NCBI GenBank assembly: GCA_029006135.1
Contig: JAQXGE010000007.1
Span: forward strand, 1 to 64,000
Origin: Oscillospiraceae bacterium
GTDB lineage: Bacteria > Bacillota > Clostridia > Oscillospirales > Ruminococcaceae
DNA: 64,000 bases
Reading direction: 5' to 3'
Below, piece by piece: positions 54,635 to 63,890 of this stretch. The translations under genes were made by a program, and so were the position numbers. The notes beneath the pieces are model-generated. The model had not been told where the DNA came from, made no database searches, and saw only the letters and a list, made by a program, of their open reading frames with translations. Each line of letters starts with the position of its first letter. Position 1 is the first letter of the stretch.

Positions 54635-54653
54635 CATTTTACAAAAAGTACAT

Positions 54654-54744
54654 AAATTTATTTAGGTAATTTGCTTGACATATCCTTTGGCGTAGTGTAT
54701 GATAATCCCGTTCCAAATTTATCTAAATATTTTTAGATAAATTT
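54654..54744 (+). promoter_or_regulatory. fab operon promoter with two related operator-like repeats
   Basis: TTGACA (54675-54680)-N17-TATGAT (54698-54703); perfect IR AAATTTATCTAAA-TATT-TTTAGATAAATTT (54715-54744); imperfect copy AAATTTATTTAGGTAATTT (54654-54672). Confidence 0.85.
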
Positions 54745-54771: not shown

Positions 54772-54999
54772 ATGACTTTTGATGAACTGAAGAATATCGT
54801 TGTTGACACCCTGAGCTGCGATGAGGAGAAGGTTACCATGGAGGCAAGCCTTGCCGATGATTTGCAGGCAGACAGCCTGGATGCTGTCGAGCTGAATATG
54901 GCGCTCGAGGAGGCCTGCGGGCTTTCCATTCCCGATGAGGAACTGGGCAATATGAAGACCGTCGGTGACATCTTCAACTACATCACCGCACACGCCTGA
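54772..54999 (+). CDS. acpP: Acyl carrier protein
   Basis: ASLADDLQADSLDAVELNMALEEACGLSIPDEE. Confidence 0.97.
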   Translation: MTFDELKNIVVDTLSCDEEKVTMEASLADDLQADSLDAVELNMALEEACGLSIPDEELGNMKTVGDIFNYITAHA

Positions 55000-55010
55000 G
55001 GGCAAAAGCA

Positions 55011-55892
55011 ATGAGCAGTGTGAGTAATCTGTTTAGTGCGGGCCGGGAGCGGACGTTCCAGTTAAAAGCCCGCAAAGAGGCCGGTACTGCCGCCCCCGTG
55101 TGGCAGGCGCCTCAGTTTGTAACCTGCAAAAAATGTGAGCGCCGCGCCACACGCCAGGTCTGGGCAAAAAGTTTGTATGTCTGCCCCAACTGCGGGATGC
55201 ACCAGCCCATTGGCGGGTATTACCGGCTGAGCCTTGTGCTGGACCACGGAAGCTTTCAGGAATTGGACGCCGGCCTTGCGCCAAAAAACGTACTGGATTT
55301 CCCGGGTTATGACGAAAAGCTCAGCGCACAGCAGCACAAAACGGGTCTTGAGGAAGCTGTTGTGACAGCCTGCGGGCGGATTGGCGGTGTACCTGTTGTT
55401 GCCGCCGTTCTCGACAGCCGCTTTTTTATGGGCAGCATGAGTTCTGCGGTAGGTGAGAAAATCACCCGCGCCATCGAACACGCCGGTGCCAAACATATGC
55501 CGCTTGTCATTTTTTCTGCCAGCGGCGGTGCGCGGATGCAGGAGGGCATTTTCAGCCTGATGCAGATGGCCAAGACCACCGCCGCACTGGAACGGTTCAG
55601 TGAAAAAGGCGGGCTTTTTATCAGTGTACTCACCCACCCCACCACCGGCGGCGTAACAGCCAGCTTTGCGAGCTTGGGTGACATCATGCTGGCCGAGCCT
55701 GACGCACTCATTGGTTTTGCCGGACCGCGCGTCATTGAACAGACCATCGGCGAAAAGCTGCCTGATGGATTTCAGCGCAGTGAATTTCAGTTGGAGCATG
55801 GATTTGTGGACGCGGTCGTCCCCCGTAATAAAATGCGGGAGACATTGGCGCAGCTTCTTCAGCTTCACGCCTCAGGGAGGAAACGCAATTGA
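55011..55892 (+). CDS. accD: Acetyl-CoA carboxylase carboxyltransferase subunit beta
   Basis: Zn ribbon [44 protein letters not shown]. Confidence 0.97.
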
Positions 55893-56845
55893 TTAAGGAC
55901 ACACTCAAAGAGTTGGAAACGTTGGAAGCGCAGATGGCCGCCCTTGGCTCCGATGCGCCGGATGAAGCCAACGGCTTTGACGAGGACCGCCGCACCTCCC
56001 ATGCCGCCGCACTTGCTCAAATGCAGCAGCGGCACAGTGAGCTGCTTGAAAGCTGCGAAACCCTCACCGCCGAGGATCGGGTCTTTCTGGCCCGGCACCC
56101 GCACCGTCCTCACATTGATGAATGGATTGATGCGCTGTTCACGGACTTCTTTGAGCAGCGCGGCGACCGCCAGTGCAAGGAGGATGCCGCCATACTCGGC
56201 GGCATTGCCCGATACCACGGGATGCCCGTGACGGTGCTGGGACATCGCAAGGGCGGGAACATTGAGGAGAACCTCAAATACAATTTCGGAATGCCAGGTC
56301 CCGAAGGGTACCGCAAAGCGCTGCGCATCATGAAGCAGGCCGAAAAGTTCGGCAGGCCCATCATCACTTTCATTGACACTCCCGGTGCCTACCCCGGCAA
56401 GGAAGCCGAGGAACGTGGGCAGGGCGAAGCCATTGCCCGCAACCTGATGGAGATGAGTGGCCTGACCGTTCCGGTCATTGCCGTTGTGACGGGTGAAGGC
56501 TCAAGCGGCGGCGCACTTGGGTTGGGTGTTGCCAACCGCATCCTGATGCTGGAAAATGCAGTGTATTCGGTTTTGAGTCCCGAAGGGTTTGCCAGTATCC
56601 TCTGGAAAGATTCCAGCCGCAGCGGCGAGGCCTGTGAGATGATGAAGCTCACCGCACAGGACCTTTACCGCGATGGGATTGTGGAGGAAGTTATTCCCGA
56701 GCCGCTCGGCGGTGCTCAGCGCGACCACGGCAAAATGTTTGCCGCACTGGATTTGGCACTTGAAAAGCACCTTGCGCGGCTGTGCCGCATGAGTGGGCGG
56801 GCGCTTGCAGACCAGCGCTACAAAAAATTCCGTCAGATAGGGTGA
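55889..56845 (+). CDS. accA: Acetyl-CoA carboxylase carboxyltransferase subunit alpha
   Basis: [53 protein letters not shown]. Confidence 0.97.
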
Positions 56846-56858
56846 GAAAGGGTAACGC

Positions 56859-57815
56859 ATGGAAGGACTTAAGCTGATTGCCACAGGCGGAGCGCGCCCC
56901 GGCCGTCTCGTCACCAACGAAGAACTGAGCAAAACGGTGGACACAAGTGACGAGTGGATTTCCACCCGCACCGGCATCCGCCAGAGATATTTCTGTACGC
57001 CGGAGCAAAACGCGGCCACGCTAGCCATTGAAGCGGCACAGCAGGCACTCGAACGAAGCGGGCTGTCCCCCGCTCAGATTGACTGCTGTGTCTGCGCCAC
57101 GCTTTCCGGGCCGACTGCCTCGCCCAGTGTTGCCTGTCAGGTTCAGCGTGCGCTCGGGCTGCCGGAAAATCGGCCAGCGTTCGATGTAAACGCCGCGTGT
57201 TCCGGTTTTATCTATGGCACGGCCGCAGCACACGGCCTGCTCACAACACTGGGAGGGCGCTATGCGCTCGTCATCGGATGCGAAGCGCTTTCCCGCCTGA
57301 TGGACCCCACTGACCGCTCCACCTGTGTGCTGTTCGGTGACGGTGCAGGCGCGGTCGTGTTCGAGTTATCATCGGATACCGTTTTTGCGGTATCCCTCGG
57401 CGCACGCGGAGATGACGCCATTCGGGTGGGCGGGCCAAACCCTTCCGGCAGTGAACCGATTCAGATGGACGGCAAAGCAGTCTTTCGTTTTGCTGTCAGC
57501 GCACTTCCCCTCTGCCTGAATGAAGTTTTGGGCAAAGCACAGCTGACACTGGATGATCTTGACTGGGTTGTCTGCCATCAGGCAAACAGCCGCATTATCG
57601 ACCACTGTGTGCGGCATCTTGGTGCCAATCCCGCAAAGTTTTATAAAAACATGGACCGTTTTGGCAACACCAGCGCTGCAAGCATCCCGGTCGCACTCAA
57701 CGAAATGGCCGAGACTGGGCTTCTTGTTCCTGGTCAGACCCTCGGGTGCATCGGTTTTGGCGGCGGACTGACCTGGGGCGGAATGCTGCTTCAGTATAAG
57801 GGAGTCAAACAATGA
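56859..57815 (+). CDS. fabH: 3-oxoacyl-ACP synthase III
   Basis: TSDEWISTRTGIRQRYF; NAACSGFIYGTAAAHGLL; CHQANSRIID; GNTSAASIPVAL. Confidence 0.97.
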   Translation: MEGLKLIATGGARPGRLVTNEELSKTVDTSDEWISTRTGIRQRYFCTPEQNAATLAIEAAQQALERSGLSPAQIDCCVCATLSGPTASPSVACQVQRALGLPENRPAFDVNAACSGFIYGTAAAHGLLTTLGGRYALVIGCEALSRLMDPTDRSTCVLFGDGAGAVVFELSSDTVFAVSLGARGDDAIRVGGPNPSGSEPIQMDGKAVFRFAVSALPLCLNEVLGKAQLTLDDLDWVVCHQANSRIIDHCVRHLGANPAKFYKNMDRFGNTSAASIPVALNEMAETGLLVPGQTLGCIGFGGGLTWGGMLLQYKGVKQ

Positions 57816-58750
57816 AACTTCTCAATGAGATTCTGGGAACAAAATATCCCATCATTCAGGGCGGCATGGCCAACATTGCCACCGGTGAGTTTGCCGCCGC
57901 CTGCTCAAACGCGGGTGCGCTGGGCCTGATTGGCACAGGCGGCATGAAAAATGCCGAGGAGCTGCGCGATCATATCCGCCGCTGCCGCGCTCTCACTGAC
58001 AAGCCGTTCGGTGTGAACATCATGCTCATGCATCCCGAGTCAGACGCATTTGCCCGCGTTGCCGCCGAGGAAAAAGTTCGTGTCGTGACGACCGGTGCAG
58101 GCAATCCGGGCAAATATCTGCCCGCCTGGAAAGAGGCCGGAATTTTTGTCATCCCCGTTGTATCCGCCGCTGTACTGGCCCGTCATCTTGAAAAAGCCGG
58201 TGCCGATGCCCTCATCGCCGAAGGTACTGAAAGCGGCGGTCATGTAGGGGAAATGACCACGATGGCCCTGGTTCCGCAGGTCGTGGATGCGGTGAGCATC
58301 CCCGTCATTGCTGCCGGAGGAATTGCGGACGGCCGGCAGATGGCCGCCGCGCTGGCGCTGGGTGCCTGCGGCGTTCAGGTCGGGACCTGCCTGCTCGTCA
58401 GTGAAGAGTGCCCCATTCACCCCAACTACAAAGCCGCCCTGCTCAAAGCGAAGGACAGCGACACCATTGTGACCGGGCGCATTGGCGGCACCCCTGTGCG
58501 GGTACTAAAAAACCGCATGAGCCGCGAGTATGTTCGCCAGGAAAAAGCCGGTGCTGACAAGATGGAACTGGAGAAGTTTACGCTCGGCAGCCTGCGCCGT
58601 GCTGTTTTTGAAGGTGACACCAACACGGGAAGCCTCATGGCCGGTCAGGTCTGCGGGATGCTTCACGAAGTACGCCCCGTGGCCGATATTTTGGCTGATT
58701 TGGATCGTGGTGCGAAGCAGCGCATGAAGGCGCTGCAGGAACTATGCTGA
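57812..58750 (+). CDS. fabK: Enoyl-ACP reductase II
   Basis: YPIIQGGMANIATGEFAAACSNAGALGLIGTGGM; DKPFGVNIMLMHP; VVTTGAGNPGKY; VIAAGGIADGRQMAAALALGA. Confidence 0.95.
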   Translation: MKLLNEILGTKYPIIQGGMANIATGEFAAACSNAGALGLIGTGGMKNAEELRDHIRRCRALTDKPFGVNIMLMHPESDAFARVAAEEKVRVVTTGAGNPGKYLPAWKEAGIFVIPVVSAAVLARHLEKAGADALIAEGTESGGHVGEMTTMALVPQVVDAVSIPVIAAGGIADGRQMAAALALGACGVQVGTCLLVSEECPIHPNYKAALLKAKDSDTIVTGRIGGTPVRVLKNRMSREYVRQEKAGADKMELEKFTLGSLRRAVFEGDTNTGSLMAGQVCGMLHEVRPVADILADLDRGAKQRMKALQELC

Positions 58751-59811
58751 CGCTGGCGGGGCACCCGCTCCCTATCCCCATCCTGCAAGGCGGAATGGGC
58801 GTCGGCGTTTCGCTGGGTGGGCTGGCCGGAGCCGTGGCAGCCTGCGGCGGCATGGGGTGCATCAGCACCGCGGACGTTGGCTACCGGGAACCGGATTTTG
58901 CCTCCGCGCCCTTTGAAGCCAACCTGCGCGCGCTCAAAAAAGAAATCCAAAAAGCCAGGGAACTGGCTCACGGCACCGGGATGATTGCCGTCAACGCAAT
59001 GGTTGCGACCCGGCAGTACGCGCAGGCTGTCCGAGTCGCCGCAGAAGCCGGTGCGGATGCAATTATCTGCGGTGCCGGGCTGCCGCTTGATTTGCCCTCA
59101 CTTGTTACAGACCCCGGCGTTGCGATTGCTCCGATTGTATCCAGCGCACGAGCCGCAAAACTCATCTGCAAAAGCTGGATGAAGCGTTACCGCCGTGCAC
59201 CTGACTTTATCGTGATTGAGGGCTGCCGTGCCGGAGGGCATCTTGGGTTTGCCGAGGAAGATCTGCTTGACGGGACCTGTCAGAGCCTTGATGAGATTCT
59301 TCCTGAAGTGCTCTGTGCCATTCATCCTTATGAAGAAGAGATTGGCCGGGACATCCCTGTTTTTGTGGCGGGCGGCGTTTACACCGGAACGGATATGGCG
59401 CACTTCACAAAAAATGGTGCGGCGGGCGTTCAGCTTGCCACACGCTTTATCCCCACCTACGAATGTGATGCCAGCCAAGGATACAAGGATGCTCTGCTTG
59501 CCGCCAAGGAAGAGGACGTGCGCATTATCCACAGTCCTGTGGGTATGCCCGGCCGTGCTTTGGCCACACCGCTGGTCAAAAAGCTCGAGGAAGGCCTGAG
59601 TTTTCCACCGCAGCATTGCTGCGCCTGCATCAAGTCCTGCAATCCTAAGGAAATTCCCTACTGCATCACCCACGCGCTCATTGAAGCCGTCAAGGGCAAT
59701 GTTGAGGAAGGGCTGTTTTTCTGCGGTGCAAACGTGGGGCGGCTCGACAGGATGATGCACGTCAGCGAACTGATGGATGAACTTGTCACCGAATGGAGGT
59801 TACACCAATGA
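58744..59811 (+). CDS. Nitronate monooxygenase-superfamily flavoprotein, FabX-like
   Basis: PIPILQGGMGVGVSLGGLAGAVAACGG; CRAGGHLGF; PVFVAGGVYT; C-terminal HCCACIKSCNPKEIPYC and EEGLFFCGANVGRLDRMMHVSELMDELV. Confidence 0.85.
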   Translation: MLTLAGHPLPIPILQGGMGVGVSLGGLAGAVAACGGMGCISTADVGYREPDFASAPFEANLRALKKEIQKARELAHGTGMIAVNAMVATRQYAQAVRVAAEAGADAIICGAGLPLDLPSLVTDPGVAIAPIVSSARAAKLICKSWMKRYRRAPDFIVIEGCRAGGHLGFAEEDLLDGTCQSLDEILPEVLCAIHPYEEEIGRDIPVFVAGGVYTGTDMAHFTKNGAAGVQLATRFIPTYECDASQGYKDALLAAKEEDVRIIHSPVGMPGRALATPLVKKLEEGLSFPPQHCCACIKSCNPKEIPYCITHALIEAVKGNVEEGLFFCGANVGRLDRMMHVSELMDELVTEWRLHQ

Positions 59812-60746
59812 AACTTGCCTTTTTGTATGCCGGTCAGGGCAGTCAGCACGCCGGGATGGGTGCGGACCTGTATAGCCAGTTTTCCGCCTTCCGCCGCGTA
59901 TTCGATGAAGTTTCCCAAGGTCTTGACTTTGATTTGAAGTCCGTATGCTTTGAGGACCCGGACGGCGTTATCAACGAGACCCAGTACACGCAGCCCTGCA
60001 TGGTCGCCTTTGCGGCCGGTGTGACGCAGGTTCTGCGTGAAGCGGGGATTGTGCCGGATTATGCCGCCGGGCTTTCGCTTGGAGAATACTCGGCGCTCGA
60101 ATGTGCCGGTGTGTTTGATGCCAACACGGCGGTCGAGCTGACCGCATTCCGCGGCAAAGCAATGGCAGAAGCCTCCAAAGACCTTGCCTGCGGGATGACC
60201 GCTGTCATGATGCTGGACCGTGACACTTTGCAGCACTGCTGTGATGAGGCTTCCCATTTGGGTGTTGTCCAGATTTGCAACTACAACTGCCCCGGGCAGT
60301 TAGTCATCGGCGGCGAACAGGCCGCCGTTGATTATGCGGCCGAATTAGCCAAACAGGCCGGTGCAAAGCGCTGCATCCCGTTAAAAGTCAGCGGGCCGTT
60401 CCACACCAGCCTGATGCACCCCGCCGGGGATGCACTGCGGGAGCGGTTTAAGAGCGTACATTTTGCTCCCATGCAGATTCCTGTTCTGTTCAATTGTTTA
60501 GGGCAGGAAAAGCAGGACACGGACACAATCCCGGAACTGCTTGAGCGTCAGGTGCAGAGCAGCGTTCGCTGGGAGGATACCGTGCGGCGTCTGGCCGAAT
60601 TGGGCGTTGATACTATTATTGAAATTGGGCCGGGGAAGGCCCTCTCCGGTTTTGTGAAAAAGACCGTTGGCTCTGCCATTTGCTGCCGCACGGTGGAAAC
60701 CGCCGAACAGCTGGCACAGCTGATTGCTGAAGTCCGGGAGGTGTAA
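59808..60746 (+). CDS. fabD: Malonyl-CoA:ACP transacylase
   Basis: MKLAFLYAGQGSQHAGMG; AAGLSLGEYSAL; GPFHTSLM. Confidence 0.97.
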   Translation: MKLAFLYAGQGSQHAGMGADLYSQFSAFRRVFDEVSQGLDFDLKSVCFEDPDGVINETQYTQPCMVAFAAGVTQVLREAGIVPDYAAGLSLGEYSALECAGVFDANTAVELTAFRGKAMAEASKDLACGMTAVMMLDRDTLQHCCDEASHLGVVQICNYNCPGQLVIGGEQAAVDYAAELAKQAGAKRCIPLKVSGPFHTSLMHPAGDALRERFKSVHFAPMQIPVLFNCLGQEKQDTDTIPELLERQVQSSVRWEDTVRRLAELGVDTIIEIGPGKALSGFVKKTVGSAICCRTVETAEQLAQLIAEVREV

Positions 60747-60748
60747 AA

Positions 60749-61513
60749 ATGGCAGAGATGAAAGAGACAGAAACCGTTTTGCACCGCACCGCCCTTGTCA
60801 CTGGCGGCGGACGCGGAATTGGCCGTGCCGTCTGCCTTGCGCTTGCACGGAATGGGTTTGATATTGCTGTCAACTACGCCGGCAATGCGCAGGCGGCAGA
60901 GGAAACCGCCGCAGCCTGCCGTGCATTGGGTGTCAATGCCGTTGTGATTCAGGCTGATGTGAGCAAAGCCGACAGCTGTCAGGAACTGGTTGATTCGGCT
61001 GTTAAAGCCCTGGGGCGGTTGGACGTTCTTGTGAACAACGCCGGTGTGACAGCTGATAAGCTGATGATGCGCATGACAGAAGACGACTTTGACCACGTCA
61101 TCAACACTAACCTCAAAGGCGCGTTCTTCTGCACCAAAGCCGCAACGCGTGTGATGATGCGTCAGCGTTATGGGCGGGTCATCAGCCTGAGCAGTGTCGT
61201 CGGATTGCACGGCAACGCCGGTCAGACCAATTACGCGGCAAGCAAAGCCGGCATTGTCGGCATGACCAAGAGCGTCGCAAAGGAATATGCCGCCCGGGGA
61301 ATCACTGCCAACGCGATCGCCCCCGGCCTGATTGAAACCGATATGACCCATGCGATGCCGTCCGCCGCCCGCGATGCCGCACTCGGAACCATCCCCGCCG
61401 CACGATGCGGCCGTGCCGAAGAAGTTGCCGACGCCGTGGCGTTCCTTGCCAGTGAGCGCGCGGGGTATATCACCGGTCAGGTACTGTGTGTTGATGGCGG
61501 CATGGGAATGTAA
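60749..61513 (+). CDS. fabG: 3-oxoacyl-ACP reductase
   Basis: ALVTGGGRGIGRAVCLALARNGFD; NNAGVTADKLMMRM; YAASKAGIVGMTKSVAKEYA. Confidence 0.97.
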   Translation: MAEMKETETVLHRTALVTGGGRGIGRAVCLALARNGFDIAVNYAGNAQAAEETAAACRALGVNAVVIQADVSKADSCQELVDSAVKALGRLDVLVNNAGVTADKLMMRMTEDDFDHVINTNLKGAFFCTKAATRVMMRQRYGRVISLSSVVGLHGNAGQTNYAASKAGIVGMTKSVAKEYAARGITANAIAPGLIETDMTHAMPSAARDAALGTIPAARCGRAEEVADAVAFLASERAGYITGQVLCVDGGMGM

Positions 61514-61524
61514 GGAGACATTTT

Positions 61525-62766
61525 ATGGAAAAACGCAGAGTTGTTATTACCGGTCTTGGAACCGTAAACCCCCTCGGCAATACGGTTGCCGAGAGTTGGA
61601 ACGCAGTCAAAGAAGGGAAATGCGGAATTGCACCTATCACCCACTTTGATACGACTGGGTGCAAAGTCACATTGGCCGGCGAAGTCAAGAACTTTGACCC
61701 TGCCGTGTGCATTGAAAAGCGCGAACTGCGCAAAATGGCCCGCTTCACGCAGTTTGCTGTTGTGGCTGCGCAGGAAGCCGTGACGGACAGCGGCCTTGAT
61801 TTAGAAGTCACCGATCTTTCGCGATTCGGCACAATTATTTCCAGCGGTATTGGAGGTTTGCCCACTATCGAGGAAGAACACACAAAGGGCGAGCAGAAGG
61901 GCTTTGACAAGGTCAGCCCCTACTTTGTGCCGATGTCCATCGGCAATATGGCGGCGGGCCAAGTTGCCATCCGCTTTGGGCTGAAAGGAATGTGTTCCTG
62001 CCCCACCACCGCCTGTGCGGGCGGCACCAATGCCATTGGCGATGCCTTCCACCGTATTCGTGACGGATATGAGGATCTGATGATCTGCGGCGGAACCGAA
62101 AGCTGCATCAGCCCGCTGGGCGTGGGTGGTTTTACCAGCATGAAAGCACTCTCCACTGCCGCGGACCCCGAGCGTGCTTCCATCCCCTTTGATGCCGAAC
62201 GCAGCGGGTTTGTGATGGGCGAAGGATGCGGTGTACTGATTCTTGAAGAGCTGAGCCATGCCAAAGCGCGCGGTGCAAAAATCTATGCCGAGATGGTGGG
62301 ATATGCGAGCAACTGCGATGCCTATCACTTCACTGCTCCCGCCCCCGGCGGTGCCGGCGGTGCGGCCTGCATGAAACTGGCGCTTGCCGATGGCGATGTG
62401 GCGCCGGAGCAGGTCGATTATATCAATGCGCACGGCACCTCCACCCACCTGAACGACAGCTGTGAGACAGCCGCCATCAAGACCGTGTTCGGTGAGCACG
62501 CCTATAAGCTGGCAGTCTCCTCCACCAAATCCATGACGGGGCATCTGCTGGGCGGTGCCGGCGGTGTTGAGGGTGTCTTTACCGCCATGGCTCTGCATGA
62601 CGGATTTTTGCCCGCAACCATCAACCTGAAAGTTCCCGACCCCGAACTGGACCTTGACTACATCCCGAACCATGGCCGGGCCGTTCAGGCGGAATACGCG
62701 ATGAGTGACAGCCTTGGTTTTGGCGGACACAATGCCTGCATTGTCATGCGGCGCTGGGAGGGCTGA
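61525..62766 (+). CDS. fabF: 3-oxoacyl-ACP synthase II
   Basis: RRVVITGLGTVNPLGNTVAESWNAVKEGKCGI; TACAGGTNAIGDAF; NAHGTSTHLND; SLGFGGHNACIV. Confidence 0.98.
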   Translation: MEKRRVVITGLGTVNPLGNTVAESWNAVKEGKCGIAPITHFDTTGCKVTLAGEVKNFDPAVCIEKRELRKMARFTQFAVVAAQEAVTDSGLDLEVTDLSRFGTIISSGIGGLPTIEEEHTKGEQKGFDKVSPYFVPMSIGNMAAGQVAIRFGLKGMCSCPTTACAGGTNAIGDAFHRIRDGYEDLMICGGTESCISPLGVGGFTSMKALSTAADPERASIPFDAERSGFVMGEGCGVLILEELSHAKARGAKIYAEMVGYASNCDAYHFTAPAPGGAGGAACMKLALADGDVAPEQVDYINAHGTSTHLNDSCETAAIKTVFGEHAYKLAVSSTKSMTGHLLGGAGGVEGVFTAMALHDGFLPATINLKVPDPELDLDYIPNHGRAVQAEYAMSDSLGFGGHNACIVMRRWEG

Positions 62767-62769
62767 CGG

Positions 62770-63249
62770 ATGGCCATTACACCGAACGAACCGCCGCGCA
62801 CACTGAACGCGGCACAAATCGCCGAGATTCTCCCCCACCGTTACCCCTTTGCGCTGGTCGACCGCATTACGGACTATCAGCCCGGCGTATGGGCAAAAGG
62901 AATCAAATGCGTCACGCTGAATGAGCCGTTTTTACAGGGACATTTTCCCGGCCAGCCGGTCATGCCCGGTGTGCTGATTCTTGAAGCACTGGCACAAACG
63001 GGTGCGGTTGCGGCGCTGAGCCTGCCGGAAAACAAGGGCAAACTTGCCCTGTTCGGCGGGGTAAAAAACGCACGGTTCCGCCGTCAGGTGGTTCCCGGCG
63101 ATGTGCTGACGCTTGAGTGTGAGTTGGTAGAACAGCATGGGCCTATGGGCATTGGCAAAGCCACCGCATGGGTGGACGGCGTGCGGGCGGTCAATGCCGA
63201 ACTGACCTTCGTTATCGCGCCGCGCGAGAGCGAAAAATCCAGCACTTGA
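62770..63249 (+). CDS. fabZ: 3-hydroxyacyl-ACP dehydratase
   Basis: EILPHRYPFALVDRITDYQPG; QGHFPGQPVMPGVLILEALAQ. Confidence 0.97.
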   Translation: MAITPNEPPRTLNAAQIAEILPHRYPFALVDRITDYQPGVWAKGIKCVTLNEPFLQGHFPGQPVMPGVLILEALAQTGAVAALSLPENKGKLALFGGVKNARFRRQVVPGDVLTLECELVEQHGPMGIGKATAWVDGVRAVNAELTFVIAPRESEKSST

Positions 63250-63335
63250 ACACTTCCGGCATTTTTGAGGGCTGGTCTTTGACGCAAAATCGTGCTATTA
63301 TATTTTTATCGCAACTGTATTCGGAGGTTTTTGCC

Positions 63336-63815
63336 ATGCTGGACCAGGCTTTTGAGGAAGTATACAACAAATTCAAGCTCCATTTTTACCAGAAGATTTT
63401 CAGCCGTTTTGAGGACCGTGAAGCCACCCTCACCACGGTCGAGTCGTTCTGCATGGAAGTCATCATGGCACTGCACGAGCCCACGATTGCAGAGTTCAGC
63501 CACATGATGAACCTTTCCACACCGAATGCGGCCTACAAAATCAACTCCCTTGTAAAAAAGGGTTATGTGGAGCGCATCCAGTCCAGCACCGACAAGCGGG
63601 AATATCACCTGCGTCCCACCCAAAAATACATTGACTACTATAACATCAGCTATTCCTATCTTCATCAGGTCATGGAGCGTGCGAAGGAGCGCTTCAGTGC
63701 GGAGGATTTGAAAAAGCTTGAGGAGATGCTGGTCATCTTTTCAAACGAGCTGATGCCGGAGATTTCCCTGCCTAAGCGCGAAATTCCCATGTCCAAGTGC
63801 GAATCTGACAGCTGA
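63336..63815 (+). CDS. MarR-family (FabT-like) transcriptional regulator
   Basis: MALHEPTIAEFSHMMNLSTPNAAYKINSLVKKGYVERIQSSTDKREYHLRPTQKY wHTH; SD CGGAGG; last gene of fab operon. Confidence 0.88.
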   Translation: MLDQAFEEVYNKFKLHFYQKIFSRFEDREATLTTVESFCMEVIMALHEPTIAEFSHMMNLSTPNAAYKINSLVKKGYVERIQSSTDKREYHLRPTQKYIDYYNISYSYLHQVMERAKERFSAEDLKKLEEMLVIFSNELMPEISLPKREIPMSKCESDS

Positions 63816-63837
63816 ATTTCATAACCAAATAAAGCAA

Positions 63838-63890
63838 ACAGTGCCTCTGTGTTCCGTTATCTGACGGTGAACAGAGGCACTGTTTTTTGA
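63838..63890. terminator. Terminator of fab operon
   Basis: AACAGTGCCTCTGTGTTC ... GAACAGAGGCACTGTTTTTT. Confidence 0.88.

What the first reader, a model, noticed from the sequence alone, without database searches (positions are those of the whole stretch)
54654..54744. Unusual operator pair at the fab promoter: AAATTTATCTAAA-TATT-TTTAGATAAATTT
Seen: a perfect 13-bp inverted repeat over the transcription start region, plus a degenerate copy AAATTTATTTAGGTAATTT just upstream of the -35, bracketing TTGACA-N17-TATGAT. A MarR gene ends the operon. Recalled FapR (TTAGTACCTGGTACTAA-like) and FabT (ATTTGA..TCAAAT-like) sites differ. Inferred: a distinct MarR/FabT-like lipid regulon operator. The MarR gene has its own weak promoter region (~63275-63310) without this motif.
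Basis: partly seen in the sequence, partly recalled or inferred. Interest (0 to 1): 0.6.

Follow-up and report, generated by a model that had tools for sequence, protein, structure and literature searches.

The report
Paired operator controlling fatty-acid synthesis genes
A gut bacterium of the Gemmiger/Faecalibacterium group switches its fatty-acid-synthesis operon through a pair of conserved 24-base DNA binding sites, most likely bound by the MarR-type regulator encoded at the end of the same operon; this looks like an undescribed branch of lipid control that works like, but is not, the known FabT system.

Summary
A perfect 13-bp inverted repeat (54715-54744) lies just past the -10 of TTGACA-N17-TATGAT, at the head of acpP-accD-accA-fabH-fabK-fabK2-fabD-fabG-fabF-fabZ-marR. 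The 'degenerate copy' is really a full 24-bp palindrome at 54647-54670, just upstream of -35. All 26 same-genus acpP promoters recovered carry the operator. It recurs at the same place in Pygmaiobacter, Fournierella, Flavonifractor, Intestinimonas and Oscillibacter, and degenerates in F. prausnitzii. The upstream copy sits exactly 16 bp from -35 in 31 of 31 promoters that have one. The only other strong site in the 2.0-Mb genome is on the promoter of a DegV/FakB (fatty-acid-binding) gene. In a distant genome the MarR orthologue is itself followed by a FakB gene, with a weak site at their promoter. MarR presence tracks the site, and MarR recognition-helix residue 62 covaries with an operator base. 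The protein is FabT-like (41 bits) but far below the FabT cut-off (200 bits), and the operator differs from FabT and FapR boxes. Verdict: a real, new MarR-type lipid regulon; binding, repression and ligand are inferred. I found no prior description in the held literature.

The parts
54647..54670 (.). upstream operator (AGTACATAAATTTATTTAGGTAAT), centre 16 bp 5' of the -35 hexamer
   Evidence: matrix score 34.1; same offset in 31/31 promoters with an upstream copy
54675..54680 (+). -35 hexamer TTGACA
54698..54703 (+). -10 hexamer TATGAT, spacer 17
54715..54744 (.). main operator AAATTTATCTAAA-TATT-TTTAGATAAATTT, over/just past the inferred transcription start
   Evidence: conserved in all 26 same-genus promoters recovered
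54772..54999 (+). acpP, acyl carrier protein, first gene of the regulated operon
55011..55892 (+). accD, acetyl-CoA carboxylase beta subunit
   Evidence: orthologue order; name from operon context and own knowledge
55889..56845 (+). accA, acetyl-CoA carboxylase alpha subunit
   Evidence: name from operon context and own knowledge
56859..57815 (+). fabH
57812..58750 (+). fabK, enoyl-ACP reductase II
   Evidence: 422.6 bits
58744..59811 (+). second FabK-like (nitronate-monooxygenase family) gene
   Evidence: 108 bits, below cut-off 453
59808..60746 (+). fabD
60749..61513 (+). fabG
61525..62766 (+). fabF
62770..63249 (+). fabZ
63336..63815 (+). marR, the proposed regulator (159 aa, FabT-like but below the FabT cut-off)
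63836..63885 (+). terminator-like inverted repeat after marR

Best explanation
The two palindromes are DNA operators of a dimeric transcription factor, most likely the MarR-family protein encoded by the last gene of the operon. It represses the acpP-fab-marR operon by binding over the transcription start (main site, centre about +17) and just upstream of the -35 (centre about -51). Because marR ends the same operon, the circuit is self-limiting. In this genome it also controls a fakB (DegV) gene, so the regulon joins fatty-acid synthesis with fatty-acid handling. By analogy with FabT, the signal is probably a long-chain acyl-ACP that tightens binding when fatty acids are plentiful. Shown: site, architecture, conservation, second site, co-occurrence with MarR. 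Inferred: MarR as binder, repression, the ligand.
For: Conserved operator in all 26 same-genus acpP promoters recovered and at the acpP promoter of Pygmaiobacter, Fournierella, Flavonifractor, Intestinimonas, Oscillibacter and others, usually as the genome's only perfect match. Fixed geometry: main-site centre 23-26 bp past -10 in 60 promoters; upstream-site centre 16 bp from -35 in 31/31. Only other strong site in the genome is on a DegV/FakB promoter, placed the same way. marR follows fabZ in most genomes with the site. In G059 (another family, MarR 50% identical) marR is followed by a DegV/FakB gene, with a weak site just past the -10 of their shared promoter. In 24 genomes of the order without a close orthologue of this MarR, none of the near-matches lies by a fab gene. 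Recognition-helix residue 62 is Thr with TTTANCTAAA operators and mostly Pro/Ala with TTTANTTAAA operators. This MarR is the genome's best FabT-profile match and no FapR passes its cut-off.
Against: No binding or expression data. The residue-62 correlation follows phylogeny (one or few events). In F. prausnitzii marR is detached from the fab operon and the sites are degenerate. The fakB site is strong only in this genome; orthologues 71-76% identical lack it. The perfectly fixed -51 spacing could mean activation rather than repression.
Confidence: 0.75

Rival explanations
1. The operators are bound by a different regulator (another MarR paralogue, a TetR or GntR protein) and the marR gene is only a passenger of the operon.
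For: No binding data; in F. prausnitzii and G. gallinarum marR lies away from the fab operon.
Against: MarR orthologue and site co-occur across families; marR-fakB pair with a weak site in G059; recognition-helix covariation; the next FabT-like protein in the genome is much weaker, 25.8 against 41 bits, and no FapR passes its cut-off.
Confidence: 0.15
2. The main palindrome acts in the mRNA leader as a hairpin (stability or translation control) rather than as a DNA operator.
For: It is transcribed and can form a 13-bp stem in this genome.
Against: An equivalent copy lies upstream of -35, outside the transcript, at a fixed offset; only 9 of 40 distinct downstream sites keep all ten arm pairs, pair 7/22 being Watson-Crick in 13/40; no Rfam family matches.
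Confidence: 0.03
3. The MarR is a dual regulator: binding at the rigidly spaced -51 site activates the promoter by touching RNA polymerase, while binding at +17 represses it.
For: Upstream offset is invariant (31/31) while the downstream offset varies 23-26; F. prausnitzii keeps the better-scoring copy upstream; the ADH/ALDH operon in six Gemmiger genomes carries only an upstream-type weak site.
Against: -51 is not a classical activator position; FabT homologues are repressors; several Gemmiger promoters and the Oscillospiraceae promoters examined lack the upstream copy.
Confidence: 0.15

Closest known systems
FabT (MarR family; streptococci, enterococci, lactococci)
   Same: MarR-family protein; gene inside the fab operon; the FabT profile and the S. 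pneumoniae FabT-DNA structure 6jbx are among the best matches; regulon joins fab genes with one fakB gene, as S. pyogenes FabT does with fakB4 (PMC10138225).
   Different: 41 bits against a FabT cut-off of 200; fabT is the first gene of its operon (PMC13046290), here marR is last or detached; FabT box ANTTTGACTGTNAAATT (PMC8406281) is unlike TTTANCTAAANNNNTTTAGNTAAA and absent from this promoter.
FapR (malonyl-CoA sensor; Bacillus, Staphylococcus, C. difficile)
   Same: Global repressor of fatty-acid synthesis genes in Firmicutes (PMC5052256).
   Different: No FapR above cut-off in this genome (23 bits against 183); FapR-like box absent.
FadR/FabR/DesT lipid regulators
   Same: Operators near fab promoters (own knowledge).
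   Different: GntR/TetR families, other operators, mainly Gram-negative (own knowledge); not tested here.

Membership tests
FabT | MarR winged-helix fold | tested here: met
   Pfam MarR 33.4 bits; AlphaFold model pLDDT 79 with MarR structures as best Foldseek matches, though with TM-scores of 0.5 or less
FabT | passes the curated FabT profile cut-off (NF050133, 200 bits) | tested here: not met
   41.4 bits; note that the control Lactococcus lactis genome did not exceed the cut-off in the genome search either, so this cut-off is strict
FabT | fabT first in the fab operon with its promoter carrying the box | tested here: not met
   marR is last or detached
FabT | operator ANTTTGACTGTNAAATT-like | tested here: not met
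   no match at the acpP promoter; 2 chance-level matches elsewhere in the window
FabT | regulon of fab genes (and one fakB in S. pyogenes) | tested here: met
   sites at the fab operon and at a DegV/FakB promoter; site presence only, not regulation
FabT | acyl-ACP as co-repressor | not testable with these tools
   needs binding assays
FapR | FapR protein encoded in the genome | tested here: not met
   best hit 23.1 bits over 50 residues, cut-off 183; genome 84% complete
FapR | FapR box at fab promoter | tested here: not met

The most novel reading that the evidence does not exclude
A separate MarR subfamily, not FabT or FapR, is the main lipid regulator of Ruminococcaceae and Oscillospiraceae. 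It uses operators of paired TTTANNTAAA boxes with a 14-bp period that in Gemmiger bracket RNA polymerase. The rigid -51 site works with polymerase to give activation as well as repression, so one protein tunes fatty-acid synthesis, fatty-acid capture and perhaps aldehyde/alcohol metabolism.
Probability: 0.15. Interest if true: 0.65.

Novelty: new variant of a known kind. Interest (0 to 1): 0.45.

Why it matters
Faecalibacterium, Gemmiger, Flavonifractor and Oscillibacter are common gut bacteria, and how they control membrane lipid synthesis appears undescribed in the papers searched. A defined operator, a candidate regulator and a fakB link make it directly testable whether they shut down their own synthesis when dietary or host fatty acids are available. 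That bears on whether drugs against fatty-acid synthesis would spare them.

Tried and rejected
FabT and FapR boxes at the promoter: absent. RNA element: no Rfam match, pairing not kept, second copy untranscribed. Operator near marR itself in the genus: none within 1.5 kb. Fixed fakB membership across the genus: not supported; only this genome has a strong fakB site, one other (G031) a weak one. Further own-genome sites: ten 2-3-mismatch hits, one of them the upstream operator; the other nine score at most 25, with no lipid gene recognised beside them by eye, and the reversed-pattern control gives more matches (18 against 12). Repeated matches TTTACCAAAAGGCATTTTGCCAAA and TTTGCCTAAAANTTTTTACAAAAA in subsets of the genus were left as probable unrelated conserved sequences.

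Full report
WHAT IS THERE. The window's 54.6-63.9 kb holds a type II fatty-acid synthesis operon: acpP, accD, accA, fabH, fabK, a second FabK-like gene, fabD, fabG, fabF, fabZ and a MarR-family gene. Its promoter is TTGACA-N17-TATGAT (54675-54703, 11 of 12 consensus). Twelve bases past the -10 starts a perfect 13-bp inverted repeat with a TATT centre (54715-54744). The pattern occurs once in the window, with none expected in shuffles even at three mismatches. A terminator-like repeat follows marR (63836-63885).

CONSERVATION. The genome belongs to the genus whose named records are mostly Gemmiger (G016 and the Gemmiger formicilis contig NZ_WQOH01000004 have the same length and coordinates). 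All 26 acpP promoters recovered from this genus carry the operator, consensus TTTANCTAAATAAATTTAGGTAAA. Searching with the MarR alignment gave 80 named loci. Wherever acpP lay well inside the locus, a site lay upstream of it, also in Pygmaiobacter, Fournierella, Flavonifractor, Intestinimonas, Oscillibacter and Pseudoflavonifractor. In the Oscillospiraceae the inner base changes: TATTTTAGTTAAANNNNTTTAATTAAAATA. In the 18 whole genomes searched, the zero-mismatch matches all sit in front of acpP. F. prausnitzii strains keep degraded versions of both sites around the same promoter. Reversed-sequence controls over the 80 loci gave maxima mostly below 20, three between 25 and 31.5, against 28-50 for the main sites in Gemmiger and Oscillospiraceae.

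GEOMETRY. In 60 promoters the main site's centre lies 23-26 bp past the -10 hexamer, i.e. around +17. In all 31 promoters with an upstream copy its centre is 16 bp before the -35. Some of these promoters are the same genome reached twice, so they are not 60 or 31 independent cases; 40 distinct downstream and 20 distinct upstream sequences are represented. Rigid placement around the promoter is the mark of a DNA operator. An RNA hairpin is unlikely: the upstream copy is not transcribed and only 9 of 40 distinct main sites keep all ten pairs.

REGULON. The only other match to the specific pattern in the 2.0-Mb (84% complete) genome is at G000:C16:32414 (matrix 42.3). It lies just past the -10 of a gene encoding a DegV/FakB-type protein (DegV 219 bits; FakB1 profile 137 bits, below its cut-off of 350). 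FakB proteins present fatty acids to fatty-acid kinase. Close relatives' fakB genes do not have the site, so this is a recent or lineage-specific extension. In six other Gemmiger genomes a weaker site (19-29) sits just before the -35 of an iron-type alcohol dehydrogenase gene, followed in those read in full by an aldehyde dehydrogenase gene. Other own-genome near-matches are no more frequent than the reversed-pattern control.

WHICH PROTEIN. The evidence for the operon's own MarR is indirect but convergent. (a) marR is last in the operon in most genomes with the site. (b) In G059, from another family, the 50%-identical MarR is followed by a DegV/FakB gene, with a weak site just past the -10 of their shared promoter; another weak one precedes its fabH. 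(c) Of 24 genomes of the order lacking a close orthologue of this MarR, none has a near-perfect site next to a fab gene. (d) Recognition-helix residue 62 is Thr in genomes with TTTANCTAAA operators and mostly Pro or Ala in those with TTTANTTAAA; this follows phylogeny and is suggestive only. (e) It is the best FabT-profile match in the genome, and there is no FapR above cut-off.

MECHANISM. A repressor dimer over the start site would block polymerase; the second dimer abuts the -35. With marR at the operon's end, regulator and enzymes rise and fall together, as argued for FabT (PMC13046290). By that analogy acyl-ACP would be the co-repressor; nothing here tests it. The invariant -51 spacing leaves open a role in activation.

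COMPARISON. It works like FabT: MarR family, fab operon plus a fakB gene (S. pyogenes FabT controls fakB4, PMC10138225). It should not be filed as FabT: 41 bits against a cut-off of 200, different gene position, different operator (ANTTTGACTGTNAAATT in PMC8406281). Six full-text searches found no description of this regulator or motif; subscription papers and RegPrecise itself were not searchable.

LIMITS. All evidence is sequence-based. The structure model is of moderate confidence (pLDDT 79) and its TM-scores to MarR structures are about 0.5 or less, so the fold assignment rests mainly on the Pfam and profile matches.

Noticed in passing
G027 and G031 (same genus, 99% complete); L115, L132: Neither genome has accD or fabF, so both seem to have lost fatty-acid synthesis. 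G031 keeps marR and has a weak operator (16.2) at its fakB promoter; no marR was found in G027.
   Followed up: partly
L087-L092: Weak operator 19 bp before the -35 of an iron-type alcohol dehydrogenase gene in six Gemmiger genomes (aldehyde dehydrogenase gene next to it where read), a possible extra regulon member.
   Followed up: partly
window 58744-59811: Second FabK-like gene beside fabK; also in Faecalibacterium, Pygmaiobacter, Fournierella and several Oscillospiraceae operons, absent from most other Gemmiger operons. Function unclear.
   Followed up: partly
L130, L158, L176, L179, L189, L216, L221: In several Oscillospiraceae and in Pygmaiobacter a further box lies 14 bp from the main operator, suggesting a 14-bp repeating box array.
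   Followed up: no
window 54772-63249: The operon has no accB/accC, unlike Oscillospiraceae operons (acpP-accB-accC-accD-accA...); their location in this genome was not sought.
   Followed up: no
G004, G018, G020, G026, G034: Conserved palindrome TTTACCAAAAGGCATTTTGCCAAA at another locus, found as a three-mismatch match; probably a different element.
   Followed up: no
L185: A MAG labelled Candidatus Collinsella stercoripullorum carries this fab-marR operon (with accC) and an operator; contamination or transfer.
   Followed up: no
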